Part shown: positions 24,113 through 57,343 of the stretch, one piece after another
How the letters are laid out: each line of letters opens with the position of its first letter
Position numbering within the stretch: the stretch's first letter is position 1
Notes under the pieces: generated by a model
What the model was told of the DNA's origin: nothing
Databases searched by the model: none
The model's input: the letters and a program-made list of their open reading frames with translations, nothing else
Position numbers and translations under genes: made by a program
Assembly: GCF_001723175.1 (NCBI RefSeq)
Contig: NC_064653.1
Span: 2,294,001 to 2,358,000 of the forward strand
Origin: Penicillium oxalicum
Lineage: Eukaryota; Ascomycota; Eurotiomycetes; Eurotiales; Aspergillaceae
Reading direction: 5' to 3'
Length of the DNA: 64,000 nt

Positions 24113-25481
24113 ATTCTCGAACGATCAGTGCATTAATTGTCACTTCACGGTCACTCCCCCTCCTTTCGAAGAGACTGGGGCACTTTTGCAGGGCTCTTCA
24201 CGTAAAATGGTCTGTTCAGCCCTGTATGAATCTTCTATTCTCGTGTCTATCTTTCCTTGTTCTGTCTGCTCTCTACCTCCTCGGGTCTGGTTTTGTGACA
24301 ACTCCCCGCTATGAGGTTTGCTGTATTGCTCGTTTGGGTCAGCCTTCCTATACCCTCTGTTGTACTCGATTTGGCTCGAACCCTGGGTTCTTCCTCGGTG
24401 CTTTTCTTCTGCACCCGAATTTTTTGGCCACTGATTCCTTCTGTTTACCCATGGCCAATTTGTTGCAGGCTTTGTCTGGCGTTGTTTGTCCAACCCCCGC
24501 TTGTTCGGCGTTTGATTCTTTCTCTCTTTGTGTCAGCGGGCCTATCATCGGTTTACTTTTATCGTCTTTTCCTACCGCTTCGCCTTTCTTTTTTTTCCTT
24601 TTCGTGGTGGATAGAGAAGGGAACCCTGTCGCGTGCCCTGGCCAGCTGTGTCACAATATTTCCAGATCGATCTGCTCGGAGTCTGTTATGTTTGACTTCC
24701 CATTAGAGTATTTTTGGATGATATTTGAATCGCCTTCTCTTCTCGCCCTGTTTCTTTTTTCTTTTCTATTTCTGCTGCGTATGTGAGAGTCGTTGTTTCG
24801 TCCTCCTCTAGAGTACGAGAGTCTATATGATCATAGGTCGTTCACGTGAACTACCTCTTTCTCATGCGCAGATTGGGCTCAACAATGTTCTTTGGAATGT
24901 ATGTGTCTCGATGTCGCGCTGTTTCTTACATTCTGGGAGCCCCTGACTTTTTCAGTCCTATCGGGCATTTCTTGCGCCTATCATCGAGTTTTGCTCGGCT
25001 CCTACCCTGATAGAGGAACGTCGTTCGGTAGAATTCGTATGAGGATGGGTTGCTATAACCTCTCTGTGGTAAGCTAGGCTAACCCGGGATCTTCCTCAAC
25101 TTCTACATACTACAACATCACAGGTCTTTTGGTACGGTCGGTCTACTCTGCGACACGCACTTAGGCTGTCCTCTGGAACATTTTAAAGTAAAAATCAAGT
25201 CCCATATCTTACGTATTTGCAGATTATCGGTCGTCGCATCGGAGCATTGACAGTCTATCGTACGCCTGCGATGTCGTCTGGCTTTCCTATCGAGTCCGAC
25301 GATTGCTGTCCTACCATCTGTCACGTCGACTGGCCGCTCCTATCGTACCATCAACCCCGATCAATATCTACGGAAGCTCTAGGTAGCTAGTTAGGCTAAG
25401 TAAGCTACTCAGCAAATTTAAAAAAAAAAAAAAAACAATCTACGGATGTTCTCGCGGAGGAAAACAAAAAGCAAAGCGTCG
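24113..25481. other. Intergenic, T-rich 3' flank of the Rsc7 gene
   Basis: No gene is supported. About 24180-24790 is strongly T- and pyrimidine-rich and probably holds the 3' untranslated region of the Rsc7 transcript. The 229-codon frame across it (24097-24786) is rich in Phe, Leu and Ser, as expected from translating T-rich DNA. Confidence 0.55.
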
Positions 25482-25555
25482 CGTCCCCGGGAAGGCTCGA
25501 ACTTCCAACCTCCTGATTAACAGTCAGACGCGCTAGCCGATTGCGCCACGGAGAC
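25482..25555 (-). tRNA. tRNA-Asn (GTT)
   Basis: On the minus strand, 74 nt fold as a standard tRNA without intron: acceptor GTCTCCG/CGGGGAC (one T-G wobble), D-arm GCGC/GCGC, anticodon stem TCTGA/TCAGG with loop CTGTTAA (anticodon GTT), T-arm GGAAG-TTCGAGC-CTTCC, discriminator G. It is identical to the copies at 26684-26757 and 44163-44236. Confidence 0.97.
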
Positions 25556-26683
25556 AACTGCTTGAAGCGTGACTAACAGTATAAAAATATGAACCTATCA
25601 CAAATACACTGCTATCTTGAGGAGCGGGTGGTGCCGGTCGCTGCGGTCAACCTTCCTGCTGATCTGCGCATGCGACGGGTAGTAAGGTTGAATAGTTGGT
25701 TTTCAATTTATCCATTCACTCTTTGAATGGCGCTTTGATTTTCGTTTTTAAATTTTCTCTCCGGTGCGTAAAGGGTAATGACCTGATGTCTGGAGCTTGA
25801 GCTCGTGCGTTAAGTAGAGTTGCCGAGCTCAGAAATATATTTACCGCGGCTGAGCAGCCATGATACCGTTCGAGCTGCGAACGATTTGGTCCGTCACTCT
25901 TGACTCCCCATCTATCGTCTGGACTCCTGGAATACCTATTCAACTACCGTACTGGATCCGGATGGACGTGAAATGGACAAGACCAAGTGGACAGGTACGG
26001 TAGGTGGTCGGCTAAAGTTTTCCACATACTTCCCAATATGACCATTACCCGTACGTATGTCAATGCCAAATTGAATGACCCATGACACAGTTTTCGCCCA
26101 GGGCGATGGAAAATGATGATGGGCACCGTCCACAACGCCTTGTAGTTCACGTTCACCTCTTCCAGACCTGGGATGTCCACATGGTTGCGTAGACGGAAAT
26201 TCTCCAGTACATGTATCAACGTACTACATGGCCACCATCCGAACTTAAATGAAATGGACCTCGGAAGACACACCTTCATTCCAACCAAGGGCATGTTCAA
26301 CAATTGGAACTCTATAACATACATGCTAGGCGGGTCGGGGCACGACAAAGATACACCCAGATCCATATACCTACTCTTACCCAGTGCGTGAGTGTCACCT
26401 AAGCCAGATCAGTACTTCCTCATTCATGAATGCACCAACCCCCGGCCTCAACCTTTTCCCTCGACAAGTCCTGAGGGCATGACCCTCTGCGTTTCTTACG
26501 ATCGTGCGGACCAGTATCTTTCTAGGCGCTACCTAGGCTCAATGACCAAAATGAACAATCAAGAGACTACAAGAACCTTAGGACATCGCACCAAAAAGAA
26601 AAGGCCAACATTGACATATAGCACCTCAATCCAACTGAGACAGCCAGCCGAAAGAGAAAAAAGAAGATAAAGATCAAAAAGAT
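25556..26683. other. Spacer between two tRNA-Asn genes
   Basis: This is 1.1 kb between the two minus-strand tRNA genes. I see no supported open frame. The flanks of the two tRNAs do not look alike beyond the tRNA itself, so the pair is not an obvious recent tandem duplication. Confidence 0.5.
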
Positions 26684-26757
26684 CGTCCCCGGGAAGGCTC
26701 GAACTTCCAACCTCCTGATTAACAGTCAGACGCGCTAGCCGATTGCGCCACGGAGAC
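26684..26757 (-). tRNA. tRNA-Asn (GTT), second copy
   Basis: Same 74-nt sequence and fold as the copy at 25482-25555, in the same orientation. Downstream on the minus strand a TTTTT run follows closely (complement of the A run near 26676-26680), a typical RNA polymerase III stop. Confidence 0.97.
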
Positions 26758-27552: not shown

Positions 27553-28269
27553 ATGTCTTCCAGCTATGGCCGAGACTTTTTCAATGGTCTGGTCTCACGG
27601 CCAGAGCTCCTCACCAAATGGATCATCCCTGTAGTGGTCCTGTATGCAGCGTATCACATCAATCGGTATCTCAGCAGTCGTGCCTTAAACAATGGCGTGC
27701 AAGCCACCTTCGACTGGTCAAAAGAGATCGTTCTCGTCACCGGAGGCTCGGATGGTATTGGAGCTGCGACGGTGGAAGAATTGGCCGGACGCGGTACGAC
27801 CGTTGTGGTGCTGGACATTCGGCCATTACAATATGATGCTCGTCAGTTAATACTCATCGTCTCTCGAGGAATATGATCGTATCTAGTTCTGATGCGAGCC
27901 TCTGTCTTTCTGGTTTTTTTTAATAACCATAATTGCAGCCCCAAATGTCCACTATTATCAATGTGATCTGACCAAGCGGTCTGAGCTCCAAGCGGTAGCT
28001 GAGCGTCTTCGTCGGTGCGTGGTGATCATGATCACTTGGAATTGGCCCTTTCCTTAACCCCCCAGCTGAAAATCCACACTCCCTGGCCGATACTTGCAAA
28101 GACTGAACATTTATCACCAGCGAGATTGGGGATCCTACCTGTGTCGTCGCCAATGCAGGTCTCTGCCGCGGCAAGCCATTGCTTCATGCTACGTCGCGAG
28201 ATGTCGAACTGTAGGTTTTTTTTCCCTTTTTCCTATCCGGCAGCATTTGCATCGCCCTCAGCCTCTAAT

Positions 28270-28326
<57 letters not shown>

Positions 28327-28837
28327 ATTCTCACAATATAGAACATTTGCTGTAAACAATCTGGCTCTGATCTGGACCGCCCAGACATTCTTACCGTCCA
28401 TGATTAAGCGAAACCACGGCCATTTCTTGATCATGGCCTCCCAGACAGCTCATCTTGCAACGGCCGGAATTGTCGACTATGCCGCGACCAAATCCGCCGC
28501 ACTTGCCATCTACGAAGGTCTCCAGACTGAGCTGCGACATGTGTACAAGGCCCCCGCCGTACGAATGTCGTGTGTGTCACCGTCAGCAGTGAAAACGAAA
28601 ATGTTCCAAGGCATCCAAATGCCCGCCTCGGTCTCGATTCTGAAGCCGTCGGATATCGGGAAAGTCGTGGCTGAGATTTTGTGGAGTGGAAAGGCCCAGA
28701 ACAAGATGACTCCCAGTATGGCGTACATCTCGCCTCCGACAAGAGCACTCCCCGATTGGATGAGAATTGGGCTTCAAGATCTTGGGAAAGATGCCATGTC
28801 TGCTCTGTCGCCTCACCATCCGATGGACGAGGCGTAG
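27553..28837 (+). CDS. Short-chain dehydrogenase/reductase, membrane-anchored SDR16C-like
   Basis: Exons 27553..27841, 27939..28014, 28121..28210 and 28342..28837 join in phase to give 316 aa. A hydrophobic N-terminal segment (about residues 21-34) suggests membrane anchoring. The Rossmann motif TGGSDGIG is at 63-70, the NAG motif follows in exon 3, an NN dinucleotide is near the exon 3/4 join, and the catalytic Ser185, Tyr198 and Lys202 fit S...YxxxK. The fold and anchor resemble the classical retinol-dehydrogenase/17-beta-HSD11-like group, which oxidise or reduce hydroxyls on lipophilic substrates with NAD(P)H. As the first gene of the terpenoid cluster it could oxidise a diterpene alcohol, but an unrelated lipid role is not excluded. 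Intron 3 carries a long AG microsatellite. Confidence 0.9.
28273..28320 (+). repeat. (AG)24 microsatellite inside SDR intron 3
   Basis: Twenty-four uninterrupted AG units lie within the 131-bp third intron (28211-28341) and end 21 bases before the used acceptor. Confidence 0.97.
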
Positions 28838-29193
28838 TCTGCGTGTCTGCTGTGGGTGAAGGTTGATTCCTGCACGAGTGAGCACGATTGATTATTTGAC
28901 TTTTTGGGTTTGCCCGGGTCTGTTTTCTTTTCTTTTTTTTTTTTCTCGGTTGAGAGTGAGATTGTGATGAATTGCGGTAGATCTGGTGTATTGAAAAAAG
29001 ATTGCATATGAGAGATTCTATCATGTTGATTTTTCTATTCTAAGCACGGATGACTTTGACGTCAAGGTCTTGTTAGCCAGGTGTGATGGTCATTTCTTTC
29101 CGGTGTTCGTTTCATCGCCACTCTTTTCCCTTACATCAATCACTGAGAAAAGACTTGGGATCAATTGTGCGTCCAATCTTCGAGTTGTAGAGT
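28838..29193. other. Convergent 3' ends of SDR and P450
   Basis: About 355 bp between the stop codons of two converging genes. It contains T-rich stretches (about 28921-28946) suited to 3' untranslated regions. No further gene is seen. Confidence 0.6.
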
Positions 29194-31073
29194 TTAGATT
29201 TTGCGAAACTCCACTAGAAGGCCACCTTTTGGACGTGACGTCAAGCCCGTCTCAATCTCAATGTCAGGATCCTGCGCGAGAGACATTTCAAAGCTTCCCA
29301 CCAGAGCGGCAAGCAGACTGGCGAATTCGCCACGGGCAAAGCCTTGTCCAATACAGGAACGTGGACCTAATGTTGATACAACCCCGAGGTCAGTGGATGT
29401 GCGTGTCTTTCGAAACGGATTGCAGGAATGTACATCCAACTTACCGTGGAGAAAAGTCATGAAAGAGAAATTGGTCAGTCCGCCGCCAGTGTTTGCCTGA
29501 TTGGGCTTCATCCATCGATCGGGGTTAAAAGTGGCCGCATCGGGCCCCCAGAGATCGCGCGAGACGTTGACTGCGCGAGGCGAAATGACGATTTCTGTCC
29601 CCGCGGGTATAAACTGGCCCAGGATGGAGGTATTCTGAACCGCCACGCGTCGAGTGAGTCCAGCGGGTGGATAGACGCGGAAGACCTCGTTGCACACCGC
29701 GTGCAGATAAGGCAAGCTGTCCAGGAGTTCGGCTTTCATGGGGGGAGCCGTCGCATGATCGAAATACTGCGGGAGGAATTGACGGACCTCATCGCGTAAC
29801 CGCCGTTGCACGTCGGGATATATACACAGCGCATAGAGTGCCCAGGTCATGGAGGTGGCCGTGGTCTCGTGGCCAGCGGCCAGGAACGTCAGGAGGTGGT
29901 TTTCAAGCATGGGATCGGTAAAGGAGTCGGATGAGAGTGCGACAGAGATGATATCGCGACCTGGTTCCTTGGAGTCATGCGCCTGCATCTTGGATCGCTT
30001 CCGTGCAATCAATCGGCGAGCGACATCGGTCAATGTCTTGGTGGCTAGACTGATGCTATCCGTGCGGGAGAGACCGAGCATCTTGACGAGGGCCTCGCGC
30101 ATGAGAAACACCCCCATGGCCAACGTGCCCTGAGGAGGCTTTAGTTCGAACACGTTTCGGTAGGCGCTACAGATTTCGTTATCTGGATGATGAAGGGTAT
30201 CGAATTCTTCTCCCAAGCCGGCAGCGCCGAGGATATCCAGCGTCGCCCGTGCGAGCCAGTCGCCGACATCAAAGACATGGGTCGAATCATCTCGAGACAA
30301 GGAGATATTTTCACGCAGCACCTGAGCCAAGGCGACAGACTTGTCCCAAAAGATAGGATAGAGATCTTTGATATGTCGGTGCAAGAATGCAGGCATCAGA
30401 AGTTTGCGTTGTTTCTAACCATGGGGGTTTCCCTCCCCCCGAATGAATGAGTCCTCGTCATCTCGCAGTGTCGTCTTGAAACATGGATGAAGCTTGCTTA
30501 CCTTGTGTTGATTTCCTTCGGCCACAATCAAGCCAACTCCCAGGATCCGACCCAGACCGAGCCGGAGTTTTGCCGGTTTTGCAAACTCGTAACTCTTCTG
30601 GACCAAAACCTCGGATAGACCTTTGGGATTGGTGACAAAGATGACCTCCTTGTTGAACCGCATGCGATACCTGATCAGTCCTGAATTGGGCACTTGATTG
30701 ATCCATTCTTGCAGAGGCATCCCCGACCGTTCATTGGGAACAAGTCTTGTATGACCGGAGAGAAGCTGGCCACCCTATTCAAAGCATCAGAAGGGGGGAT
30801 CTCTTGATTTTGGGGGTTGCTGTGATCGGTTGCTTTTCGCTTGACCATCAGACAAGCTCCACACATGATAGTAGTACTCACGGGAGGCTCGGGCAGATTT
30901 CGCAGGGGACTGAACCATATCGGCCACAGGTAGAGCTTCCAGATCACCAACAGCGCGAAAGACCCGATGAATGAGCATCCTGCGAGTACCGCGATGGACT
31001 GGGTGGGAAAGACGCGGCTGAAAATCGCCGTCTGCAAGATGCAGCCCAACGTGCCTACCTCCAGAGAATGCAT
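29194..31073 (-). CDS. Cytochrome P450 monooxygenase 1
   Basis: Exons 31073..30882, 30774..30502, 30414..29445 and 29366..29194 join in phase to give 535 aa. An N-terminal membrane anchor (about residues 26-52) precedes a Pro-rich hinge. The I-helix oxygen-binding motif is AGHETT, the K-helix ExxR is EVFR, and the heme-binding loop is FLHGPRSCIG with Cys483 as heme ligand. The region GNQHKKQRKLLMPAF around the exon 2/3 join matches the C-helix WxxxR/K-type segment and confirms the splice. The protein should be ER-bound and need the common P450 reductase. I cannot assign its CYP family with certainty; it looks like a CYP4-clan-style fungal P450 and is not closely related to its neighbour. In this cluster it most likely hydroxylates the diterpene skeleton. 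Confidence 0.93.
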
Positions 31074-32362
31074 GAAGCGTGACTTGAGAAAGATGAGAAT
31101 TTGAAATGGAGAAGTTGATGATCCTTGGAGAGAACAATCGCACCACGTTCAACGCTTCTCCTTGAAGAGAGAGATCATACTTGTACCGATCGGCTCCGAG
31201 CGACTAGTAGTCCTACCAGTACTACCAATGGTATCTGAATGAACTGAACTTTTGACAAGACTCAGTAAGCATACCAGAGTTACAGACGGTGTGTAAGAAT
31301 ACTGGACGTACGAAACATTTCATTCTGACCGAAAGGATACATACTGTACGAACTACAACACTATTTATTGAGTGGTTACTCCATGTGGTACATGACCGCA
31401 TGTACCAAGTCTTCCAGTCGTGTCTGCTTACTCCTTTTGGGGGCCAAATGGACTACTTGCATCAAGCCATCGACTGTTATCTCCGAAATTCAATCCATCC
31501 TTCACCTGCCAGTGGATCTTCATCCGCCCTGGCTGGTGCAGAATGCCCCTTTCAGGAAATCGCCAAGAGCGCCCACTTTCTCCAGAATCCAACTTCTCAA
31601 TTGTTCTGCAGGTAATCTGGATTTCTCTCTCTGCCCCTCCACCACCCCTCGGGGGAGGGGCCCGCGTATGGACCGGTGCCACACAGTGCCCAGACAACCC
31701 GGGGGCCCCCACACCGAAGCTTGGTTGCATCGCAGGTTGGATCTGAAAATAATGAGACCACTTCCCTTTCCAAAAAGACCACTGATCCGGCGGTGCGTAC
31801 TACATGGCTTCGCGTGCAGATTTGGGAAGGGGGAAGACGAGAATCAGAAGATTGATACGGAATCTATCTCTATACCGAGGGGCCGACAATCCTGGCCGAT
31901 AACGGCCACTAGTGGGAAGCAGTTGCGTCAAACTCGCTGCGAGACGTGAATCATCAAGTGGGGGGTTGAAGAGCTACGTATCGGGAAAGAAGACAATCTT
32001 CATCTTTGATCCTTGCCCTGCTTAGCTGCTCAGACTATCATTCGTTCTTACGATGAGGTGAGGAGGGGGAATGATCGAGGATCTTAGTTTATTCCCTAAA
32101 GGGCCGAGAAGGGCAAGGGATAGATAACCCAAAACGAGTTCCTGCATCATCTTTTGCGCCCAAGCGAGGCATTCGTCTAGAACAGGGGCCAGGGGGAATT
32201 AGGAAGGAGGGGGAGGGGGAGGCGGGGGAAAAGACTAAACGATAGTATTCTTTTTTTTAGTTAGTTGGATCATCTACTGCGCGCTAACTGATAGGTCCTG
32301 CAAGCCATCCCAAGGATGATGAGAATCTGACATGCATGAAATGTGAAAAATAATAATAATAA
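31074..32362. promoter_or_regulatory. Promoter region of P450 1 and 3' flank of P450 2
   Basis: The two P450 genes are in tandem on the minus strand, 1.3 kb apart. The part next to 31074 must hold the P450 1 promoter. A cluster of GTACTAC/GTAGTCC-like words lies at about 31203-31230. The open frames on the plus strand (such as 31368-31949) have no protein-like features. Confidence 0.5.
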
Positions 32363-34245
32363 TCACTTGCGAGCAGTGATTCGAACTTTGAGCGGAATCT
32401 TCTCCCACGAGGTGTAGATGTACTGTTCATCAGGCCAATGGCGGCATTCTGGCATGAGTTCGAAATCAAAGTGCCACAGCATCTTAGCAAGAATCAGTCT
32501 CAACTCGATGTTGGCCAGACTAGAGAGAAAGGGAGAAGAGAAGAGTGTTAGCCAAGAGAAATATTCTTTTTTTCCCCCTCCGCAGGGATCCATCTGCAGA
32601 GGGCGAGGAAAAGGGATCTTACTTTCGACCGATGCAGTTTCGTGGACCAAAGGAGAACGGCTGCAAAGCTTCGCGTCTGTCGTGAGCATAGGGACCGTCT
32701 GTATCGAGCCAACGCTCTGGCAGATACAGCTCCGGATCCTTGAAATTGGCGGGCGAGCGGAACACAGCATATTGAGCCATACCCATTGAGGTCTAAGAGA
32801 GAGAGAGAGACGATGAGTTAGCCCACAATGCCCTGCATGTTCTTGACGAGCCAAAGAAAAAAAAAGAAAACAAGAAAAAAGAAGAAATAAAAAAAAAGGG
32901 CATACATTGCCAGGGAGCCATTCGCCCATAATGTTGGCCCCCTCGGGCGGCGTAATGCGAGGATGACTGCCCGCAGCCGGGGGATAGAGTCGGAAAGATT
33001 CGTCGATCACGGCATTGATGTAACTCAGTCGGCTAATTCGGGCAATGTTGATCTCCTCACTGGACTCAAACGAGGTGCGGACTTCATCGAGGAGCTTTTG
33101 CATCACGCGAGGGTGAGTGCACAGATAGTAGATCGTGCCGGACAGGATCGTCGCCGTCGTCTCACTCCCCGCAATGACCATGAGATTAGCATTGGCCACC
33201 AGGTCTGGGTTGGTCAATTTGCCTTTCTCTTCGGCCTGGATCAGGTGGCTCATGAAATCAATGTAGTCTGGGTGTTGTGTCTTTCGGCGCATCACCTTTT
33301 CTTCCACCAGGCCGATATGCCACTTGCGCCGTTCGACGATGCGTTTGGGCAGAATGGCCAGAATGATCGACCGAACGTCGATGAAGCGCTGGAAGGTGCG
33401 AATGTAATGCACGTACATGATGGCGTTGAAGATCATCGACATCCACGGGTGATACTCGGTGTTTTTGAGGCAGTCAAAGGATTCGTAAAACGCCAAATGC
33501 CCAATGATGTCAAAGGTCACGTACTGTGATTCTCTAGTCAGCGCTCTCATTCCCATTTCATTCACCAATGTCTATACCGAGCGGCGAGGGAACCAACATT
33601 GAACCACTTCACGATATCCACCGGCTCTCCCTTGTCCACCACCTCGTGGAGGCGAGTCACCAAGAGGTCAATGTAGTGCAGCAAGACCGGCTCTTGACCC
33701 TTCAACACCTTATCTGAGAAGGCGTTGGACAGAAGCTTGCGCAAGTCTCCGTGCGTCTTCCGGTCCGCATTGATGATCGTGGGATGTCTCTTGTCGGCAT
33801 CGGTGTTCTCTCCAGGATCCTTGCGATTCTCGGGAAGTCCACTGCGGAAACCATAGATTTCTTTCCAGGCATCCGCTCCTGTGAAGGACAATTCTGTCGG
33901 AGCGATCCGGACAATCTCACCATGTTTCAAATGAAGCTCATGGACGGTCAAGGGAAATTTGCCACGCAACTGATGCCAGGTCCACCAGAGACGAGTGGCT
34001 GCCGCGAGCTTCGGTCCTGGGTACTTGGACAGTGGATGAAAGTAGATACGATAGATGGCGATCCCGACAATGTAGACCACGCCCTGATGCACATGATTTC
34101 ATCAGCAAACCAAATTCATAGAGACGAGAAAGAAGAAAGAGAGAAACAGTTGTTGATCAGTGGGAATAAGGATCAAACATACCACACTCAGCGTCAGGAC
34201 AGCCAACTGAGGCAAAGTGAGACTGCGAAGCCACGATGAAGCCAT
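32363..34245 (-). CDS. Cytochrome P450 monooxygenase 2 (CYP65/isotrichodermin C-15 hydroxylase-like)
   Basis: Exons 34245..34183, 34083..33598, 33523..32906, 32792..32623 and 32519..32363 join in phase to give 497 aa. The N-terminus is a membrane anchor split by the first intron, then YFHPLSKYPGPKLAAATRLW, the typical start of a large fungal P450 group. I see the I-helix AGSETT, the K-helix ESFR with LYPP, the PERF-like LPERW, and the heme loop FSFGPRNCIG with Cys442. The block YVTFDIIGHLAFYESFDCL fixes the short 74-bp intron at 33524-33597. This group contains benzoate 4-monooxygenase-like and isotrichodermin 15-hydroxylase-like enzymes, many of them terpenoid-modifying. It is divergent from the diterpene synthase and probably shares its promoter, which supports a role in the same pathway. 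Confidence 0.94.
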
Positions 34246-35288
34246 GATTGGAACCCAAAGTTCTGTGACAAACTGACTGCTACTCGAGTCTTGACCAGCA
34301 CTGGGTGAGAAATGTAGAAAGAACAAAAGTCTACACGGCCCCGTGAATCTCAAAAAGATAATGGCTTAACTCCAAGATTATTCATATAAGACAAAGAAAT
34401 TGCCAGGAAGCCAAGCGCCGAGGCAACGTAAGAGTTGGACGAAAGGTCACTGACTCTTTGGTTTGCATCGATCGATTCTAAATGCAGTCGTTTTGTATTT
34501 GCTCCCCCACCTTCCTCTCAAGCGATACCGAGTGAATAATCCTTGAAGGAGGGGGAGTAGAGAAGGGGGAAAAATCCCAAAAAAAGGAAAATCGAATAAT
34601 TGGTCAATTTCATCAGTAAATATTGTGATTGCGGTATTTGTGAAGCATTGGCCGACTCGAGCAAGGCCGCCCCCCTCAGTTGGTCGCGAAGTGAAACCGC
34701 CAAATAGCCGGCGTGGAGACTTGACTTTTTTTTTCTTCCTTTTGTTTCCTAGTCTGTTCAAATCAGAACGAATTCCAATTGCCCATCCAAGTTCTAACCA
34801 GGTCAGACCTCGACATCTTTCTGAATGGCTGATCAACTACCGAAACAATCCAGGTTGCATGCGTGGACAACGGCCGCAAGAGCCGGATTGGGGATGGCTT
34901 TGGCGCCCATTTTGGGTTTTTGATAACCCACGAGCTGACTTGCAGGTCAGCACTAACTCACTTTCTCATGCTCATGCACAATCACGCAGTAAGGCGCCCC
35001 CTCTTCTCCCCCTCCAAAAAAAGTATACGGCCAATTATCGGGGTTGAGAAGCAAGTACAACTGGCTGTGTGGGGGTGAGATGTTTCGTGCGATTGAGAAC
35101 TCGCGGGATTGACGCTTTTCGAATGGACGCATGAAAGAGGGAGGTCCATGGTCCATGAAGAGGGGGCGAAAGAATCCCTCAAGCGGACAAGTGCAGCTGT
35201 GAAGGCGGTTTATAAGCCTGGATTGATCAAATCAGACACTCACGAGTCTCCGGAAAGATATTCTCTGCTCATAGAGACGGTCTACACC
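34246..35288. promoter_or_regulatory. Shared divergent promoter, P450 2 / diterpene synthase
   Basis: About 1 kb between divergent start codons. Several CCAAT boxes in either orientation are visible (near 34597, 34648, 34886 and 35033). A TATAAG element at 35211-35216 lies 73 bases before the chosen start of the synthase and argues against the longer start at 35109. Binding factors are not identifiable from sequence alone. Confidence 0.6.
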
Positions 35289-38123
35289 ATGGATGCTGCC
35301 ACTCTACATCACTCCGCGACGAGGTTGCTCGACCGGCTCACCGAGCAGCTGGACGGTCCCCACGGGCTGGGCTTCATGAGCCCAGCAGTCTACGACACTG
35401 CGTGGGTCTCGATGATTCAGAAATCGACGGACGGCCAGAGCATCTGGCTCTTTCCCGAGTGCTTCGAATATATCCTCCAACATCAGCTTCCGGATGGGAG
35501 CTGGATCACCTATGCGTCACAGATTGATGGAATACTCAACACCGCCGCTTCCTTACTTGCTCTCCAGAGACACTCTCGCACTCCCCTCCAAATTCAGACC
35601 ATATCGGGGGAAGTTTTGTTGGATCGTGTGAATCAAGCCACGCGCGCTTTGCAGCAATTGCTGAACGAGTGGGATGTCGAATCGACTCTCCATGTCGGGT
35701 TTGAAATTCTCGTTCCCGCGCTGCTGGGCTATCTCGCCGAGGAAGGCATCACCTTTGAGTTTCCGGGGCGTGAGATGCTTCTTCGGATTCGAGAACAGAA
35801 GATGGCCCGGTTCAAGGCCGAGTATCTTTATGCACCCATTCAGACCACGGCGCTGCACTCCCTGGAGGCGTTTATCGGACTGATCGACTTTGACCGCGTG
35901 CTGCATCACAAAATCGACGGGTCCTTCATGGCCTCACCATCATCCACGGCAGCAGTCCTGATGCATGCCTCAACATGGGATGACGAGTGTGAAGTATACA
36001 TTCGCCATGTCATTCAGCAGGCAAGTGGCGCGGGGAGTGGAGGCGTGCCCAGTGCATTCCCATCGACGATTTTCGAGATCACTTGGACATTTTCCACCCT
36101 TCTCAAGGCCGACTTTGACCTGTCCACCATCTCCCCGGGGGCAGTTCAAAAAGCCCGTGATTACCTTTCAAACATGCTCAGCCTGAGCAAGGGGACTGTC
36201 GGCTTTGTGCCCGGGGTCTGTCCCGATGCCGACGACACGGCCAAGGCGCTCCTCGTGCTCAATCTACTAGAGCACAAGACGTCGCCAGATGCAATGCTTG
36301 CCTCCTTTGAGACAGAAAGCCACTTCAAGACCTACCCGCTAGAGCGTGATCCCAGCTTCTCCGCAAACTGCAACGTCCTCCTGGCATTACTCCACGTCGA
36401 GGACCCATCTCCGTTTACGCTGCAGATCGACAAGGCTGCGAGATTCTTGCACAAGCACTTCCGAGAGTCACCGAGTCTCAACGTCCAGGACAAATGGAAC
36501 CTATCTCCCCTATACTCGTGGATGCTCATGTCACAAGCAATTGCTCGTGTCCACACTCTGTGCGAACAAGACAAACTGCCCCTGCTGAAGAGTTTTCTCC
36601 ACGAAGAGCTGCTGGGGTTGCTGGCCGAGATGGCCCGTTTGGTGATCCGTCAGCAGAATGAGACGGGATCTTGGGGGAGTCGGAACTCCAAAGAAGAAAC
36701 GGCCTATGCAGTCCTCATGCTGACGTATGCTCAGCAATGCAAGACCGACGAGGTTTCACCTGGAGATGTGAGAATCGCAGTCCGACGTGGCTGTGAGTTC
36801 CTCCACTCAGATCTCACCACAGGGGCATCGGAACATCTGTGGGTGGAGAAAGTGACCTACGAGTCGAAGATTCTCTCGGAAGCCTATGTTTTGGCTGCTT
36901 TACATAATGCACTCAATGTGTGTGCAGACGAGCAAAGCGCACCCCAATCAACCGTGGTGAATGGAGAGATTCACGGAGAGGTTGATGCAGTGGCTGACAC
37001 CAATGATGTGCACGTGGACGATTGTAACCAGTCAGCCGCTATCATCAATGGCAGCGAGACCAGCGAGCTTGACTCGGGATATGTCACCTCGGTCGAAGCG
37101 TCAGAAACCAGCGCAAGCGGCATGGGAGCCGACCCTGCGCAGGACCATGACTCTTGTGGACAGAGTGACAAGTCTTCCTCAACGATTGCCAGCTGTGGTG
37201 GCTCGAGTCTTCGCCAAAGGGGACCGTGGACGGAAGAGCACGAGCAGATTCTTCTGGGCCCATTCGACTATCTCGAGAGTCTACCAGGGAAAAACATGCG
37301 CTCCAAATTCCTCCAGGCCTTCAACGTCTGGCTGCAAGCACCACCAGATCACCTGGAAGTTGTGGAAAAAGTCATTTCCATGCTGCACACGGCGTCTCTT
37401 CTCGTCGACGATATCGAGGACAGCTCCGTCCTCCGACGAGGTCAACCCGTGGCACACAGTATCTACGGTGTGGCGCAGACCTTCAACTCGGGCAACTACG
37501 TCTACTTCCTGGCCCTTCGGGAGATCTACAAATTGAACGATCCGCGAGCGATTGAGATCTTTGTCGAGGCCCTGATCCAGCTACACCGTGGCCAGGGCAT
37601 GGACGTTTTCTGGCGCGAGTCACTCATCTGTCCGACCGAGCAAGAATATCTCGACATGGTCGCCAACAAGACGGGAGCTCTATTCTGTCTCGCCGTCGAT
37701 CTGCTCCAGCTCGGGAGTCCGGTCAAAGCCGACTTCACCCCGTTGATCCAACAGTTCGGGATGATCTTCCAGATTTGCGACGACTATCTCAACCTCAAGT
37801 CGACCAGCTACTTGCAGAAAAAGGGACTCTGTGAGGATCTCACCGAGGGCAAATTCTCGTTCCCCATCATTCATAGCATACGGGCAAACCCAAGTAATCG
37901 CCAGCTTATCAATGTCTTGAAGCAAAAGCCTCAGGATGAAGAGCTCAAGCGGTTTGCTGTCGCGTACATGGAGTCGACCAATACCTTTGAATACATCCGG
38001 GGTTTCGTCGCCACGCTCAAGGCGGAGGCTTCGGAGATGATAGTCTCGTTGGAGAAGCAGGGATTAGGTGAGAATCTGGCCGTACGAAAGATATTGGCAC
38101 GGATGTCTTTGGACGAGGAGTGA
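35289..38123 (+). CDS. Chimeric diterpene synthase: class II cyclase (betagamma) fused to GGPP synthase (alpha)
   Basis: A single uninterrupted frame of 944 aa from the Met at 35289 (context caccATGg); the frame is open back to 35109. Residues about 1-541 form a class II diterpene cyclase: early segment GLGFMSPAVYDTAWVSM, the catalytic acid motif Asp313-Ala-Asp315-Asp316 (DxDD), and a QW-like QNETGSWGS repeat. About 542-644 is a low-complexity Ser/Glu/Asp-rich linker. About 645-944 is an E-chain prenyl synthase with Asp707-Asp708-Ile-Glu-Asp711 (DDxxD) and Asp831-Asp832-Tyr-Leu-Asn835 (DDxxN, usual in fungal GGPP synthases). The alpha domain should condense IPP with allylic diphosphates to GGPP, and the cyclase should protonate it to a copalyl-type diphosphate. 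The same architecture is known in the copalyl diphosphate synthases PvCPS (Penicillium/Talaromyces verruculosum) and PfCPS (Penicillium fellutanum). It differs from CPS/KS enzymes and from PaFS-type class I fusions. Exact product and stereochemistry are not readable. Confidence 0.95.
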   Translation: MDAATLHHSATRLLDRLTEQLDGPHGLGFMSPAVYDTAWVSMIQKSTDGQSIWLFPECFEYILQHQLPDGSWITYASQIDGILNTAASLLALQRHSRTPLQIQTISGEVLLDRVNQATRALQQLLNEWDVESTLHVGFEILVPALLGYLAEEGITFEFPGREMLLRIREQKMARFKAEYLYAPIQTTALHSLEAFIGLIDFDRVLHHKIDGSFMASPSSTAAVLMHASTWDDECEVYIRHVIQQASGAGSGGVPSAFPSTIFEITWTFSTLLKADFDLSTISPGAVQKARDYLSNMLSLSKGTVGFVPGVCPDADDTAKALLVLNLLEHKTSPDAMLASFETESHFKTYPLERDPSFSANCNVLLALLHVEDPSPFTLQIDKAARFLHKHFRESPSLNVQDKWNLSPLYSWMLMSQAIARVHTLCEQDKLPLLKSFLHEELLGLLAEMARLVIRQQNETGSWGSRNSKEETAYAVLMLTYAQQCKTDEVSPGDVRIAVRRGCEFLHSDLTTGASEHLWVEKVTYESKILSEAYVLAALHNALNVCADEQSAPQSTVVNGEIHGEVDAVADTNDVHVDDCNQSAAIINGSETSELDSGYVTSVEASETSASGMGADPAQDHDSCGQSDKSSSTIASCGGSSLRQRGPWTEEHEQILLGPFDYLESLPGKNMRSKFLQAFNVWLQAPPDHLEVVEKVISMLHTASLLVDDIEDSSVLRRGQPVAHSIYGVAQTFNSGNYVYFLALREIYKLNDPRAIEIFVEALIQLHRGQGMDVFWRESLICPTEQEYLDMVANKTGALFCLAVDLLQLGSPVKADFTPLIQQFGMIFQICDDYLNLKSTSYLQKKGLCEDLTEGKFSFPIIHSIRANPSNRQLINVLKQKPQDEELKRFAVAYMESTNTFEYIRGFVATLKAEASEMIVSLEKQGLGENLAVRKILARMSLDEE

Positions 38124-38344
38124 AGCATTTGCAGAACAGGTTCTCGATCGGGTCATGGATAGGACAAATTTCACGATACAAATGGAAATACTTGTGGTTT
38201 TGAGGCTTAGATAGGATGATTCTCCGGCGACACTTTACAATTGCATTCCAAGATTCAATTTATTCCCCCACCTCCACAAGATGACCCAGGAAGAGAATGA
38301 GAATACAAAGTACAATTTCTTCTTTCGCGGCTATGAACCACTAA

Positions 38345-39295
38345 CTAGATACCTTTGGAGATCGCTTGTCGTACAACAAGCCGGCGAATAATTTGATCGA
38401 TTTCATCTTCCGAAATCCCACAGAAATCCACAAAATATTTTCTGGCGCCCCCAAACTCGGCGTCGATCACCTCTCTCAGAAAGGCTCTCATATCTCTGGG
38501 ATCGCTGCTGATCACGGCTTCGGCTTGTTCCCTGGTCGCAGCCTCACCTCGCTGCAGTAGTCGAGCGATAAGGTGTTCCCGCCACGCCCCCAGGCCATGG
38601 GTCGTCAGTGCATAATCCGCAGCAATATCCTCATCCGCAACCCCGCAGAGCCTGAGGATCAGTGCAGAAAAGACCCCGGTGCGATCCTTGCCCACGGTGC
38701 AGTGAAACAGGATCGCCTCTGCGGGGTGGTGCAGGAGATGCCGCATGATGGCCCGGAAACTGCCTGTTTGAGCCGCGCTGCGGGCAATAGCTTCGTAAGC
38801 CTTGACAAAGCCCGGCCTAAAGGTCTCGACCTGGTCCGGCGCCGAGTTCGACTCCGACTGTTCCCCGGTGACGCCATACTTTTTGGCGAGCGAGACCGGG
38901 GAATAGTCACCTTCTTGGAAGACCGGGACCGCGAAGCGGGCTGTTCCTGGAATCTCCAGCAGGGCGCTGGGGTACCGCTTGGCCACGAGGTCGATCTCAC
39001 TCGCCGAGCGAAAGTCAAAAATCGCACGGATGGCGAGGGTCTCCGTCAGCGTCTTCACCCCGACGGCGGTGATTTGGGATGGTTGCGCCGCGCGGAAGAG
39101 AAGACCAGTCCGAATGGACCAGGGTGCCTCGGTCTCATCCTTGGGATCTGGAGCCGCGTCGGAAGTGACTGCAACCGGAGGATTGCATGCATAGCCTCCG
39201 ATATCTCGAACGTTGGGGACCCCCTCCACCGTGACAAATGTTGACATGTTGGGCACGAGAGGAACTTGATCTTGATAGGTCATTGGAGCTTTCAC
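38345..39295 (-). CDS. Tyrosine-phosphatase-like protein (Y_phosphatase3 fold), candidate terpenyl-diphosphate phosphatase
   Basis: An intronless frame of 316 aa from the Met at 39295; Met at 39283 or 39247 are alternatives, and the last lies just before VEGVPNVRDIGGY, the usual family N-terminus. The active-site P-loop is HCTVGKDRTG, with nucleophile Cys199 and Arg205 (numbered from 39295), so the enzyme should be catalytically competent. Other landmarks are RTGLLFRAAQPSQI, the IFDFRS strand, and a helical C-terminus. The family (fungal and bacterial dual-specificity-like phosphatases) acts on phosphotyrosine, phosphoinositides or small phosphates. It converges on the diterpene synthase with 221 bp between stops. 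With no class I cyclase present, removal of the copalyl diphosphate group is a likely job; this is inference from context. Confidence 0.88.
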   Translation of the reverse strand: MKAPMTYQDQVPLVPNMSTFVTVEGVPNVRDIGGYACNPPVAVTSDAAPDPKDETEAPWSIRTGLLFRAAQPSQITAVGVKTLTETLAIRAIFDFRSASEIDLVAKRYPSALLEIPGTARFAVPVFQEGDYSPVSLAKKYGVTGEQSESNSAPDQVETFRPGFVKAYEAIARSAAQTGSFRAIMRHLLHHPAEAILFHCTVGKDRTGVFSALILRLCGVADEDIAADYALTTHGLGAWREHLIARLLQRGEAATREQAEAVISSDPRDMRAFLREVIDAEFGGARKYFVDFCGISEDEIDQIIRRLVVRQAISKGI

Positions 39296-42236: not shown

Positions 42237-44162
42237 CTGCCGCAGGTATCACCTTTGGGGGGTCTGGTGGTGAGCTACGTCATGACTATCGAGGCATTTC
42301 TGCTACGCGGGTGGGCTGGCGAGTGGAGATCAGGTTGGCTGTGATAGGCAGAGCGGGGTTTGAGTTTGGGTAAAATCCAGACAATCAAAGGGTTGACAGC
42401 GAGCCGCGGGGGACTTTGCATGATCATAGCCACGATGGTAATTGTTGTGGATCTGGATCACCACCTGGTGGTGCTTACTCTGTGAGTTCAGCTCATTAGA
42501 ATTGGGAACTTGACCTCTGTCTCCGGTAGGTATCTATAGTACAATCTTATCACGAGTGTCTCCGAAAGAGTGATGTGATAATACAATCTTGGAGCCTTGA
42601 GATTCTGAGTCGTAACCGTGAGGTCTCTCGCTCTTTAGTGGGGCAGGGGGGGAAACATCCATCTCAGCACGATCATTCCGAATGGAGAGTCAACAGCATT
42701 CCCAATGAAACCAGTCTCAGGACGACATCTTCCGACACTCCGAGGTGGGGGGGCACTCCCACATGACCTCTCCAGCAAACGCAGCTTTTGTCGCGGCTCA
42801 GCAAGTGCCTAGGGACGGAGACAGGGAGATGGTCCTGAGGACTGCAGTGTGCACTCTGCAGTCTGCAGCACAGGTCCAGTGGTCAACAGTCGCACGTAAC
42901 CAAACATCCGAGAGTGGAGGTTGTGGCGTTCGCGCGGGAGGTCCCGCTGTGACGTCGTGGCTGAGCTGCGTCGCACATGAGCAGCGCGAAACTTGGTTCT
43001 GGACCACCTCCGGCGTCGGCTATTCTGGACAATCTCGTCCGAGAGGGTAGTCTGTACAATGGTGTGGTATGTTCAAGGCATACTGGCCTCATGTAGTGTG
43101 TACATCTAGGCTGTACGTGGTCTTCTCGATTGGGTCCTGAACACTCAAGATTGAGTCGGTGGCGGTGCTCCATGCATCTACGGACTTGTTTGTCTACAGT
43201 GTCTCCCCACATCTTGGTCCTTTTTGGGCAATTCTCGATGTTTCCGTTGCAGCTTCACGACGCAGCTGTGAATCTAGATCAAAAAAAACAAAAAAAAGGG
43301 AAACGCCCGAATCTCCACACCGGAAGTCAGCTCGGGGAAAGTTGAGCACGGAATTTCGACTTGAGGCCACCGTCATGATCGCAGAGAAGCCAAGGGGGGG
43401 CTCATCATGTCTTCTTCAGGCCCACCCGATTGCGTTGGTTGCTAGGCCTCGGCGATCGTGACTTACAGTCGTCGTGGACTGCTGGTGCACGTCGACGGTT
43501 CCTGGTTGATGGGATCTCCCAGGATTCAAGGCCGTGAGATCTACGGATCATGATCGACGGATCTCGGCACGTGATAGGACAACCGGCTCGATGGGAATGG
43601 CAACTGGAATCAAAAGGAGAAACGCGGGGGCGAGCAACCCAGACAAAAAGTCTCTGCATGACGTCATTCATGTCCTCGTACCGCGGAAGTGCCGACGATG
43701 ATTGGGATCGGGATTATACTACTTGCATTCGCGAGCCCACCAGTCCACGGCACCCGCGCGTGATGAAAGCTATGGTCACACAGCAGCTCGCAGGCAGGGG
43801 CAATTTGCCAATGACTCATTTGATCTCCAATTTATTTTTTCCCTCAACTACACTGCATCTGGTAGGGATAGTCGGAACATTACTGACGTAGCCGTGTGTA
43901 CACACGCTGTTGGAAAACAGAGTCAATGTCGGATTCCCGTCTATAGCCGGCCCCGGGAGAAAACCAGGGTATCTGTGCAACGGGCCTTGGGTGCTGGCGG
44001 TGAATGTAAGATGTGCAGGGAAGGTGGGTAGGATATAATGGAAATTCCCTTTTCGATATTAGTCCAGGGGGAACTCGACGTACATTGCCTGTTCGAGCGA
44101 CTCAGGTACTGTCTTTTAGCCAGGAAAATATTTACAAACTATCGATGATCTCTCAAGCAACC
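42237..44162. other. Intergenic region upstream of grg-1
   Basis: About 1.9 kb with no supported gene. It includes the upstream control region of grg-1. Overlapping short frames on both strands (42745-43891) have no consistent coding signal. I see no repeats beyond short homopolymers. Confidence 0.5.
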
Positions 44163-44236
44163 GTCTCCGTGGCGCAATCGGCTAGCGCGTCTGACTGTTA
44201 ATCAGGAGGTTGGAAGTTCGAGCCTTCCCGGGGACG
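44163..44236 (+). tRNA. tRNA-Asn (GTT), third copy, opposite orientation
   Basis: Same 74-nt sequence as the copies at 25482-25555 and 26684-26757, but on the plus strand. A TTTTT run follows about 14 bases downstream, as expected for polymerase III termination. Confidence 0.97.
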
Positions 44237-46341
44237 CATAGCTTTACTTTTTGATTCCAATCCACACATCAATCAAAATGTATACGAAGAGGATGGAGTA
44301 CTCGAAAAGTGAAAGTGACCCACTTTCTTTTTTTTGCCATTTGGGGCTTGCCGCTCTCCTGGTTGGGCGGAAACAACAGTAGTCCAGGCCGACAAAGCAA
44401 TAGTTTGGGCTCTCAATCGGAAGACACCTGCGTGAACCCAATAACTGGAGGGTATGTAGGGCTATGACGAACTCGCTTCAGATATGAGTAAATTGACTGA
44501 TTGTAGAAAGAATCCAATGAGTCGGATCCATTGATGGTGTATTTTGCCGTGATCGGGTATACTATATGTGGCTCGCAATATACACATTGAACTACGTATG
44601 CTCCAACATGAGGTTCACCAACTACCCCCAGGACGCAACCCGGTAGATAAATGTACATGTATCCATCCATGCATCTTGGACTTGACGGGGTCAACTTAAG
44701 TTTCTCGGGCAGCAAATGTCCCTTCCCACCTGCGTCTACGAGACTTATCCCATCACGACCCAGCGGATATGGAGGTATCTTCATCCACTCTGATCGATTG
44801 TTACTTGACTAGATCAACCCGGATACCGTATATATACGCAAATGGGATATAGAGATGCACCTTGTCCAAACCTATTGCTGGAGTCGGTCCCGTCAGTCGG
44901 GCTTTCAATCCACCACTGAGTAGGTACATAAACACCTTTGACACGCTCCCAGGCACATCGGCAGAGAAGATCACAGTGCCAGGCTTCCCGTCGTCGATAA
45001 GGTTCCTAGGCTATCAGATTGAGAATCCACAAGAACCTCATGACCTAATCCATGCTGTAGGCTCGCCCTTCATCTGATTACTGAACAATCTAGGACAGAA
45101 GCCGGATGGAAACCTATGATGGCCCAGAAAACCAGCCCAAGAGAAGTCACCAGACAGGCATTATGAACCTTTTATGCTCGCCCGTACATTGGCAGTTTCT
45201 AGATCACCGAGATCACGGGCATTGTCCAATATCTTTTCCATGAGATCTAGGTATCCAGATGGATATTTTGATGATTGGTAGGTAGGGAGATAGGTACCCA
45301 AGAACCTAACCTATACTGACATGTGATCCCACCAGACCGACGAGACAAGATATTAGCATATACTCTTCTCTGAAAAAAAAAGGAAACCCCCCCCCCCCCC
45401 CCAAATCAGCTTTGACTCGTCAATCCGCATCGATAATTTTCAAAATGACCGATTCCAAAGAATCATCTTCATAATACCGCCATCCAGATTGGTGCCACGC
45501 TGTACCCGAAATACACCAAGATGGCATCTTTCCCATCGGAAAAGACACATGAAGCTAGTACCGCCTACCTAATACAGCAAGCTGAGGAAGTTGATTATCA
45601 CGCTGGTTTGCAGGGCAAATCAGTCCACCGGCAAGTAGGTTCCATGAATCCGAGTGGGAATAAGCTCGGTACAGCTCTCAATGCTTGAAGCTTTGCTTAG
45701 CGAAAAGTGCAGGTATTAGAATGTCTTGTAGGTACCTAGTGTCCCACATTTGACTACTTATTCCCATTCAAGGGACAAGCCTGCTCTCATCTCTTCTGAA
45801 GGTTTCGATGAGATACCAGGCTTGATCTTCAATTCTACATGCTGAGAATGGCTTCGACTAACTCTACAATATAGCACCTACTTACCTATTAGTAGCTTGG
45901 GTACGTCGCTATAGACTTTTTCTGCCCGATAAGGCGGCTCCTCCTCTAGGCGTATGCCGGATGGGACGAGACTTGGAATCTGAGCCAGCTTCCGTGCGGT
46001 CTTGATCCAGTGCGCGTCAGTACTCAAGGCGCAGACCAGGCTTAGCATCGGTGGCGATATCGATTGACTTTGTCCGTTTGTTTCGAATTGGCTTGAGAAC
46101 AAGTCCGCCCTCCCCCCCTTCCCGCCGTAGATGGAAGGGTAAACAAAATTTGATAATTTTGCAAAGCTAGCCTGGCCAGACAGTCCAGCCCGCCAGGATC
46201 TTTCATCGTGGTGACAATGCTCAAATCGAATTTCAATTAGTGTATTTGCGTCTATCTGAATACCCCTCCTTTCTTTCCCCCCCAAACTAGATCAATCTCA
46301 AAACCCATACCGGGTACTTTCCAGTTTGCCTCAATTGCCAC
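44237..46341. other. Intergenic region with C16 run
   Basis: About 2.1 kb without a supported gene. It contains several GGTAGGTA/TACCTA-type words (about 45270-45310, 45725-45740), an A9 run at 45373-45381 and a run of 16 C at 45387-45402. The 135-codon minus-strand frame at 45878-46285 lies directly downstream of the histidine phosphatase gene and looks like translated 3' flank. Confidence 0.5.
45387..45402. repeat. Homopolymer run of 16 C
   Basis: Sixteen consecutive C close after an A9 run, in non-coding DNA. Confidence 0.95.

Positions 46342-57246: not shown

Positions 57247-57343
<97 letters not shown>

What the first reader, a model, noticed from the sequence alone, without database searches (positions are those of the whole stretch)
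27553..39295. Compact labdane-type diterpenoid cluster built around a class II cyclase-GGPP synthase fusion
Five adjacent genes (SDR, P450, P450, chimeric synthase, phosphatase-like) lie within 12 kb, with unrelated genes only outside. The synthase carries all catalytic motifs for both steps: DxDD at Asp313-316, DDxxD at 707-711 and DDxxN at 831-835. The chimeric architecture is known in a few Penicillium/Talaromyces enzymes (PvCPS, PfCPS), but the combination with these tailoring genes would be a self-contained route from IPP/DMAPP-derived precursors to an oxidised labdane, and the end product is not predictable.
Basis: partly seen in the sequence, partly recalled or inferred. Interest (0 to 1): 0.85.

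Follow-up and report, generated by a model that had tools for sequence, protein, structure and literature searches.

The report
Penicillium labdane diterpene gene cluster
This stretch of a Penicillium genome, very probably P. oxalicum, holds a five-gene set that probably makes an oxidised diterpene acid; it belongs to an already described family of fungal clusters, and its likely kind of product can be predicted.

Summary
In detail: SDR, two P450s, a 944-residue class II cyclase-prenyltransferase fusion and a phosphatase lie at 27553-39283, with the three motifs at the stated residues. The fusion belongs to the PvCPS/PfCPS family; 33 of the 120 listed relatives share the architecture and form one clade. 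The cluster fits the published labd family (Talaromyces, Mar Drugs 2023), for which the synthase and a phosphatase are named as the two conserved genes. One P450 is 100% identical to Penicillium oxalicum PDE_07207; P. oxalicum is the species from which the seco-labdane penioxalicin was described. So 'the end product is not predictable' does not stand. Expected: copalyl diphosphate, dephosphorylation, then agathic-acid-type dioic acids oxidised on ring A, possibly penioxalicin. Two labd genes (aldehyde dehydrogenase, P450-methyltransferase) were not found here, and orthology of P450-2 and the SDR was not tested, so the late steps are unproven. The phosphatase is a PF13350 cysteine (tyrosine-phosphatase-type) enzyme; if it acts on copalyl diphosphate, that is the most interesting point. 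New member of a known kind; modest interest.

The parts
27553..28837 (+). SDR (LabdG-like by class only), exons 27553-27841, 27939-28014, 28121-28210, 28342-28837; 316 aa; TGGSDGIG and YAATK motifs
   Evidence: Splice and translation; PF00106; best solved relatives 17-beta-HSD 13 and type XI
29194..31073 (-). P450-1, exons 31073-30882, 30774-30502, 30414-29445, 29366-29194; 535 aa
   Evidence: PF00067; 100% identical over 94% to P. oxalicum 114-2 PDE_07207, 86% to P. ucsense over full length
32363..34245 (-). P450-2, exons 34245-34183, 34083-33598, 33523-32906, 32792-32623, 32519-32363; 497 aa
   Evidence: PF00067 3.4e-71; no relatives searched
34246..35288 (.). intergenic region between divergent P450-2 and synthase (possible shared promoter; inference)
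   Evidence: Coordinates
35289..38123 (+). chimeric class II diterpene cyclase-GGPP synthase (PvCPS/PfCPS/LabdA kind), 944 aa, no intron
   Evidence: PF00348; full-length match to chains 8v0f and 9q3i, both named copalyl diphosphate synthase
36225..36236 (+). DADD (class II DxDD motif, residues 313-316)
   Evidence: present in 33 of 33 chimeric rows
36924..37223 (+). variable linker, residues about 546-645 (boundaries set by me)
   Evidence: 7-44% identity to the 32 relatives other than the identical P0001, against 52-79% (cyclase part) and 58-94% (prenyltransferase part)
37407..37421 (+). DDIED (first Asp-rich prenyltransferase motif, residues 707-711)
37779..37793 (+). DDYLN (second Asp-rich motif, residues 831-835)
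38345..39283 (-). cysteine phosphatase, PF13350 Y_phosphatase3 (LabdB-like by position), 312 aa
   Evidence: relatives; AlphaFold model mean pLDDT 85.0; best folds C. difficile PTP 8dhi/8dhj and M. tuberculosis PtpB 2oz5/1ywf
38675..38704 (-). phosphatase P-loop HCTVGKDRTG, residues 194-203
   Evidence: C195, T196, G198, R201, T202, G203 invariant in the 17-row alignment

Best explanation
A labd-family diterpenoid cluster of Penicillium oxalicum. The C-terminal domain of the fusion joins DMAPP and three IPP into GGPP; the N-terminal class II domain, with its DADD motif, cyclises it to copalyl diphosphate, presumably the (+) form as in labd. The PF13350 cysteine phosphatase, or other phosphatases of the cell, removes the diphosphate. 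The alcohol end is oxidised to the C-15 acid (in the labd work this was ascribed to host enzymes). The two P450s do what LabdE and LabdF do in Talaromyces: oxidise a methyl on C-4 to an acid, giving agathic acid, and oxidise ring A around C-2, with the SDR reducing a C-2 ketone. The predicted pool is agathic acid, its 2-hydroxy and 2-oxo forms and a nor form; with an aldehyde dehydrogenase from elsewhere in the genome, ring A might be opened towards penioxalicin. Shown here: gene content, motifs, synthase family, co-occurrence of synthase, phosphatase and P450-1, species by one gene. Taken from the labd paper: the chemistry. Inferred: that P450-2 and the SDR are counterparts of labd genes, the role of the phosphatase, and the final product.
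For: Motifs and full-length match to two solved copalyl diphosphate synthases; 33 of 33 chimeras in one clade of a 120-row tree, support 1.0; phosphatase and P450-1 on same-length contigs as the synthase in 14 and 13 of 32 relatives, with near-consecutive locus tags in Recurvomyces and T. atroroseus (all three genes), Trypethelium eluteriae (synthase and P450-1), and P. vulpinum, P. angulare, P. longicatenatum, P. robsamsonii, P. frequentans (phosphatase and P450-1); labd reconstitution, where labdABEF made compounds 3 and 6-12 and LabdG reduced the C-2 ketone of 11 (PMC10744899, parts 1-4 of 6 read); P450-1 100% to P. oxalicum; penioxalicin described from P. oxalicum TW01-1 (cited in PMC13301828 and PMC7824341, passages); P. 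verruculosum KUFA1509, of the PvCPS species, yields (+)-agathic acid and penioxalicin together (PMC13301828, abstract and passages); no class I partner found in the genome.
Against: No LabdD or LabdC counterpart found in the window (and Pfam scans). In the labd work ring-opened talarobicin B came only in trace amounts from labdABDEF, and penioxalicin was proposed, not among the 13 isolated compounds. The attempt to tie P450-1 to bacterial LabE failed: among 71 bacterial loci the best was 32% over a long stretch and 38% over a partial one. Neither phosphatase nor P450-1 was found on the synthase's contig in 13 of 32 relatives, and P. diatomitis, the closest synthase relative, shows the phosphatase only. 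The labd cluster was silent in its native host. The strain is not known to be TW01-1.
Confidence: 0.77

Rival explanations
1. The cluster stops at unopened labdane dioic acids (agathic acid, 2-hydroxy, 2-oxo, nor form); penioxalicin of P. oxalicum TW01-1 comes from a fuller cluster in that strain or needs unlinked enzymes. This is a variant of the best explanation, not exclusive of it.
For: No aldehyde dehydrogenase and no third P450 found in the window; labdABEF alone gave 3 and 6-12.
Against: The genome has aldehyde dehydrogenase genes elsewhere (14 exon-level matches) that could stand in for LabdD; penioxalicin is reported from this species.
Confidence: 0.4
2. The copalyl diphosphate is handed to a class I synthase and becomes a tri- or tetracyclic diterpene, as the database name 'phyllocladan-16-alpha-ol synthase' would suggest.
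For: NCBI names many of the chimeric relatives so.
Against: The C-terminal domain is a prenyltransferase, not a class I cyclase. A full-length fungal 'ent-kaurene synthase' (P0036) used as query matches only this gene's class II half in the genome (one candidate); the single PF19086 match is weak and on contig C7. A phosphatase beside the synthase fits a dephosphorylated labdane.
Confidence: 0.04
3. The cyclase half is inactive and the enzyme supplies only GGPP.
For: None found.
Against: DADD intact and the cyclase part 52-79% identical across the 32 chimeric relatives other than the identical P0001.
Confidence: 0.03
4. The phosphatase gene is a bystander protein phosphatase, not a pathway enzyme.
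For: The solved relatives are bacterial tyrosine phosphatases; the labd paper says an endogenous A. nidulans phosphatase or LabdB could do the step.
Against: A phosphatase is named in PMC10744899 as one of the two conserved genes of such clusters; this one shares the synthase's contig in 14 of 32 relatives, out to Recurvomyces.
Confidence: 0.25

Closest known systems
labd cluster of Talaromyces sp. HDN151403 (LabdA-G), talarobicins (PMC10744899)
   Same: Chimeric synthase, phosphatase, two P450s and an SDR
   Different: No aldehyde dehydrogenase (LabdD) or P450-methyltransferase (LabdC) found in the window; the synthase is 57-58% identical to the Talaromyces orthologues P0023-P0025; LabdA itself was not compared
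PvCPS (P. verruculosum) and PfCPS (P. fellutanum); solved chains 8v0f and 9q3i are named copalyl diphosphate synthase (which chain is which enzyme is from recall)
   Same: Whole architecture and motifs; 1279 and 1190 bits over nearly the full length; PvCPS is described as a hexamer of prenyltransferase domains with class II cyclases on long flexible linkers (PMC8190136, passages)
   Different: Linker sequence and length
C. difficile PTP and M. tuberculosis PtpB (matched by PF13350-type sequence and fold)
   Same: Fold and CX5R P-loop
   Different: 22-24% identity in the fold alignment; no terpenoid role known to me
AstI/AstK phosphatases of the astellolide cluster (PMC5024094, passages)
   Same: Cluster-encoded removal of a diphosphate after a protonation-initiated cyclisation
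   Different: HAD-like enzymes, another fold; sesquiterpene substrate

Membership tests
Chimeric class II cyclase-prenyltransferase (PvCPS/PfCPS kind) | N-terminal class II cyclase with DxDD | tested here: met
   DADD 313-316; class II half aligned to 8v0f and 9q3i
Chimeric class II cyclase-prenyltransferase (PvCPS/PfCPS kind) | C-terminal prenyltransferase with DDxxD and DDxxN | tested here: met
   PF00348 6.9e-69; motifs
Chimeric class II cyclase-prenyltransferase (PvCPS/PfCPS kind) | Groups with the chimeras, not with CPS/kaurene-type synthases | tested here: met
   33 of 33 chimeras in one clade of a 120-row tree, support 1.0
Chimeric class II cyclase-prenyltransferase (PvCPS/PfCPS kind) | Makes copalyl diphosphate from DMAPP and IPP | not testable with these tools
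   Needs an enzyme assay
labd-type cluster | Synthase and a phosphatase together (the two genes PMC10744899 calls conserved) | tested here: met
   35289-38123 and 38345-39283 adjacent; related phosphatase on a same-length contig in 14 of 32 chimeric relatives, Talaromyces included. The Pfam family of LabdB is not given in the parts read
labd-type cluster | Two stand-alone P450s (LabdE, LabdF) | tested here: inconclusive
   Two P450s present; P450-1 has full-length Talaromyces relatives at 65-69%; which is E or F, and whether P450-2 is orthologous, not tested
labd-type cluster | SDR (LabdG) | tested here: inconclusive
   SDR present; orthology not tested
labd-type cluster | ALDH (LabdD) and P450-methyltransferase (LabdC); present in HDN151403, not stated to be conserved, so not defining | tested here: not met
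   No ALDH match in the window among 11 of 29 candidates scored or in the 55 ORFs scanned; no other P450 in the window. Elsewhere, two P450/Methyltransf_25 pairs lie within 2 kb: one on opposite strands (C3), one reading as two genes (C8)
Penioxalicin biosynthetic cluster | Loss of penioxalicin on loss of the synthase | not tested
   No such experiment seen in the listings (20 of 43 shown; none)
PF13350 phosphatase | Profile match, CX5R P-loop and fold | tested here: met

The most novel reading that the evidence does not exclude
The cluster's PF13350 protein is a dedicated copalyl diphosphatase: a cysteine-dependent, tyrosine-phosphatase-fold enzyme recruited to strip the diphosphate from a terpenyl diphosphate, kept beside the fused synthase across distant ascomycete lineages. 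Together the five genes would be a minimal natural set leading into the penioxalicin family, giving that orphan compound its locus.
Probability: 0.45. Interest if true: 0.5.

Novelty: new member of a known kind. Interest (0 to 1): 0.3.

Why it matters
It gives a concrete candidate locus for agathic-acid-type labdanes and penioxalicin in P. oxalicum; the searches made here (open-licence papers, mostly listings) showed no genes assigned to them in this species. It also raises one testable enzymology question: whether a tyrosine-phosphatase-type fold serves as a terpenyl diphosphatase. It is not a new kind of cluster.

Tried and rejected
Linking P450-1 to the Streptomyces P450 LabE (39% to LabdE according to the labd paper) through bacterial relatives: 71 loci, best 32% over a long stretch (L046) and 38% over a partial one (L033); no LabE recognised, so the E/F assignment is left open. 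The neighbours of these loci were not examined.

Search for a LabdC-like P450-methyltransferase fusion elsewhere: 96 P450 and 42 Methyltransf_25 exon-level matches compared by eye; two pairs lie within 2 kb, C3 on opposite strands and C8 on one strand; the C8 pair reads as two separate genes. Inconclusive, because both lists are capped and LabdC's methyltransferase family is not given in the parts read.

Class I partner for a kaurane/phyllocladane product: none found; the database name 'phyllocladan-16-alpha-ol synthase' is taken to be a transferred label.

Literature on P. oxalicum genes PDE_07205 to PDE_07210: no paper. Follow-up papers on LabdE or PfCPS: the term 'labda' matched 2,868 mostly plant-chemistry papers, so the search was uninformative. 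PMC11599460 was opened for PvCPS and concerns switchgrass enzymes of that name.

Full report
What is there. The five genes are real. Pfam sees the C-terminal polyprenyl synthetase domain (6.9e-69). Against solved structures the two best matches are chains 8v0f (1279 bits, residues 1-942) and 9q3i (1190 bits, residues 5-942), both named copalyl diphosphate synthase. The SDR (27553-28837 +), P450-1 (31073-29194 -) and P450-2 (34245-32363 -) contain 3, 3 and 4 introns in my splice and give Pfam matches along most of the domain. The phosphatase is intronless, 38345-39283 (-), and belongs to PF13350, Y_phosphatase3 (1.6e-51). All 55 ORFs of 150 aa or more in the window were scanned with Pfam; outside the cluster they name only unrelated genes.

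Which organism. P450-1 is 100% identical, over 94% of its length, to PDE_07207 of Penicillium oxalicum 114-2; the next, P. ucsense, is 86%. The assembly has 30.77 Mb in 17 contigs. I take the window to be P. oxalicum.

The synthase family. Of the 120 best relatives listed (622 passed the threshold among 7,994 scored), 33 carry the prenyltransferase domain in the precomputed Pfam column, P0001 (identical to the window's protein) among them, and 87 do not. In a tree of the cyclase part of all 120, the 33 chimeras form one clade, support 1.0, so a single origin of the fusion is the simplest reading. DADD is present in 33 of 33; the first Asp-rich motif is DDIED or DDIQD in 33 of 33; the second has the form DD-x-x-N in 33 of 33. 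In the 32 other than P0001 the linker is 7-44% identical, against 52-79% (cyclase) and 58-94% (prenyltransferase). PvCPS is described as a hexameric prenyltransferase core with class II cyclases on long flexible linkers (PMC8190136, passages). NCBI's label 'phyllocladan-16-alpha-ol synthase' on many of these is misleading: the C-terminal domain is not a class I cyclase, and a whole kaurene-type synthase used as query matches only this gene's class II half in the genome.

The cluster family. Zhang et al. 2023 (PMC10744899; parts 1-4 of 6 of the text read, and passages) describe labd of Talaromyces sp. HDN151403: LabdA (fusion), LabdB (phosphatase), LabdC (P450-methyltransferase), LabdD (aldehyde dehydrogenase), LabdE and LabdF (P450s), LabdG (SDR). 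They report homologous clusters in Talaromyces and Penicillium and name the phosphatase and the fusion as the two conserved genes, beside various modifying genes. In A. nidulans, labdAB gave a 3-hydroxy-labdadienoic and a 3-hydroxy-labdenoic acid (the oxidation and reduction ascribed to host enzymes), labdABF gave labda-8(17),13E-diene-15,19-dioic acid (agathic acid, by my knowledge of the name), labdABE gave talarobicin C, labdABEF gave compounds 3 and 6-12, and LabdG reduced the 2-ketone. The window holds genes of the five kinds A, B, E/F (two) and G.

Co-occurrence measured here. Using the contig length printed with each protein as a tag, the phosphatase relative shares the synthase's contig in 14 of 32 chimeric relatives, P450-1 in 13 of 32, both in 8 of 32, at least one in 19 of 32 and neither in 13 of 32. 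Each entry shows only its longest contig, strains differ and only parts of the lists were compared, so these are lower bounds; the misses may also be real losses. Three further phosphatase/P450-1 pairs share a contig length without a listed synthase. Locus tags place the genes close together: Recurvomyces LTR78_000149, 000150 and 000152; T. atroroseus UA08_07229, 07231 and 07232; P. vulpinum N7479_003466 and 003469; P. angulare N7456_002769 and 002772. Against: P. diatomitis, the nearest relative of the synthase, shows the phosphatase only. P450-2 and the SDR were not searched.

Product. Penioxalicin, a 3-nor-2,3-seco-labdane, was described from P. oxalicum TW01-1 (Bian et al. 2015, not read; cited in passages of PMC13301828, PMC7824341, PMC10780140 and PMC11509394). 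P. verruculosum KUFA1509 yields (+)-agathic acid, a 2-hydroxy form and penioxalicin together (PMC13301828, abstract and passages). The labd paper places penioxalicin downstream of the dioic acids but proposes rather than shows that step. I therefore predict agathic acid and its 2-oxidised and nor forms with fair confidence, and penioxalicin with less, because no aldehyde dehydrogenase or P450-methyltransferase was found in the window. The genome has other aldehyde dehydrogenases. In the listings I saw no paper that assigns penioxalicin to a P. oxalicum locus; the library holds open-licence papers only.

The phosphatase. An AlphaFold model on a 17-row alignment (mean pLDDT 85.0) matches C. difficile tyrosine phosphatase 8dhi/8dhj and M. 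tuberculosis PtpB (Foldseek E 1.5e-12 to 9.3e-12, 22-24% identity). The P-loop HCTVGKDRTG carries Cys195 and Arg201, invariant in all 17 rows. So this would be a cysteine phosphatase acting on a terpenyl diphosphate, unlike the HAD-type AstI and AstK (PMC5024094, passages). The genome gave 4 exon-level PF13350 matches, this gene included. That it acts on copalyl diphosphate is inference; in the labd paper host enzymes could also do the step.

Verdict. Correct observation; interpretation right on the enzyme, wrong on novelty and predictability. A new member of a known kind, with one open enzymological point.

Noticed in passing
25482-25555 (-), 26684-26757 (-), 44163-44236 (+): Three identical tRNA-Asn(GTT) genes flank the cluster, two on the left and one in inverted orientation on the right; 25462-25608 and 44110-44256 form an inverted repeat of 147 nt at 81%.
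   Followed up: partly
P0260 and P0095 (Aspergillus versicolor CBS 583.65): A 66% relative of P450-1 lies on a contig of the same length (1,321,896) as a CPS/kaurene-type synthase that is not a chimera: this P450 may have been paired with a different cyclase there.
   Followed up: partly
28274-28321: A (GA)n microsatellite sits inside the third SDR intron.
   Followed up: no
G000:C3:392065-393091 (L002, L003): A second GGPP-synthase-like gene, 60% identical to residues 695-937 of the fusion, perhaps the housekeeping copy.
   Followed up: no
48799-51134 (-): A homeodomain protein gene with a long open frame beside it, right of the cluster.
   Followed up: no
57249-57342: A long (CA)n repeat right of the cluster.
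   Followed up: no
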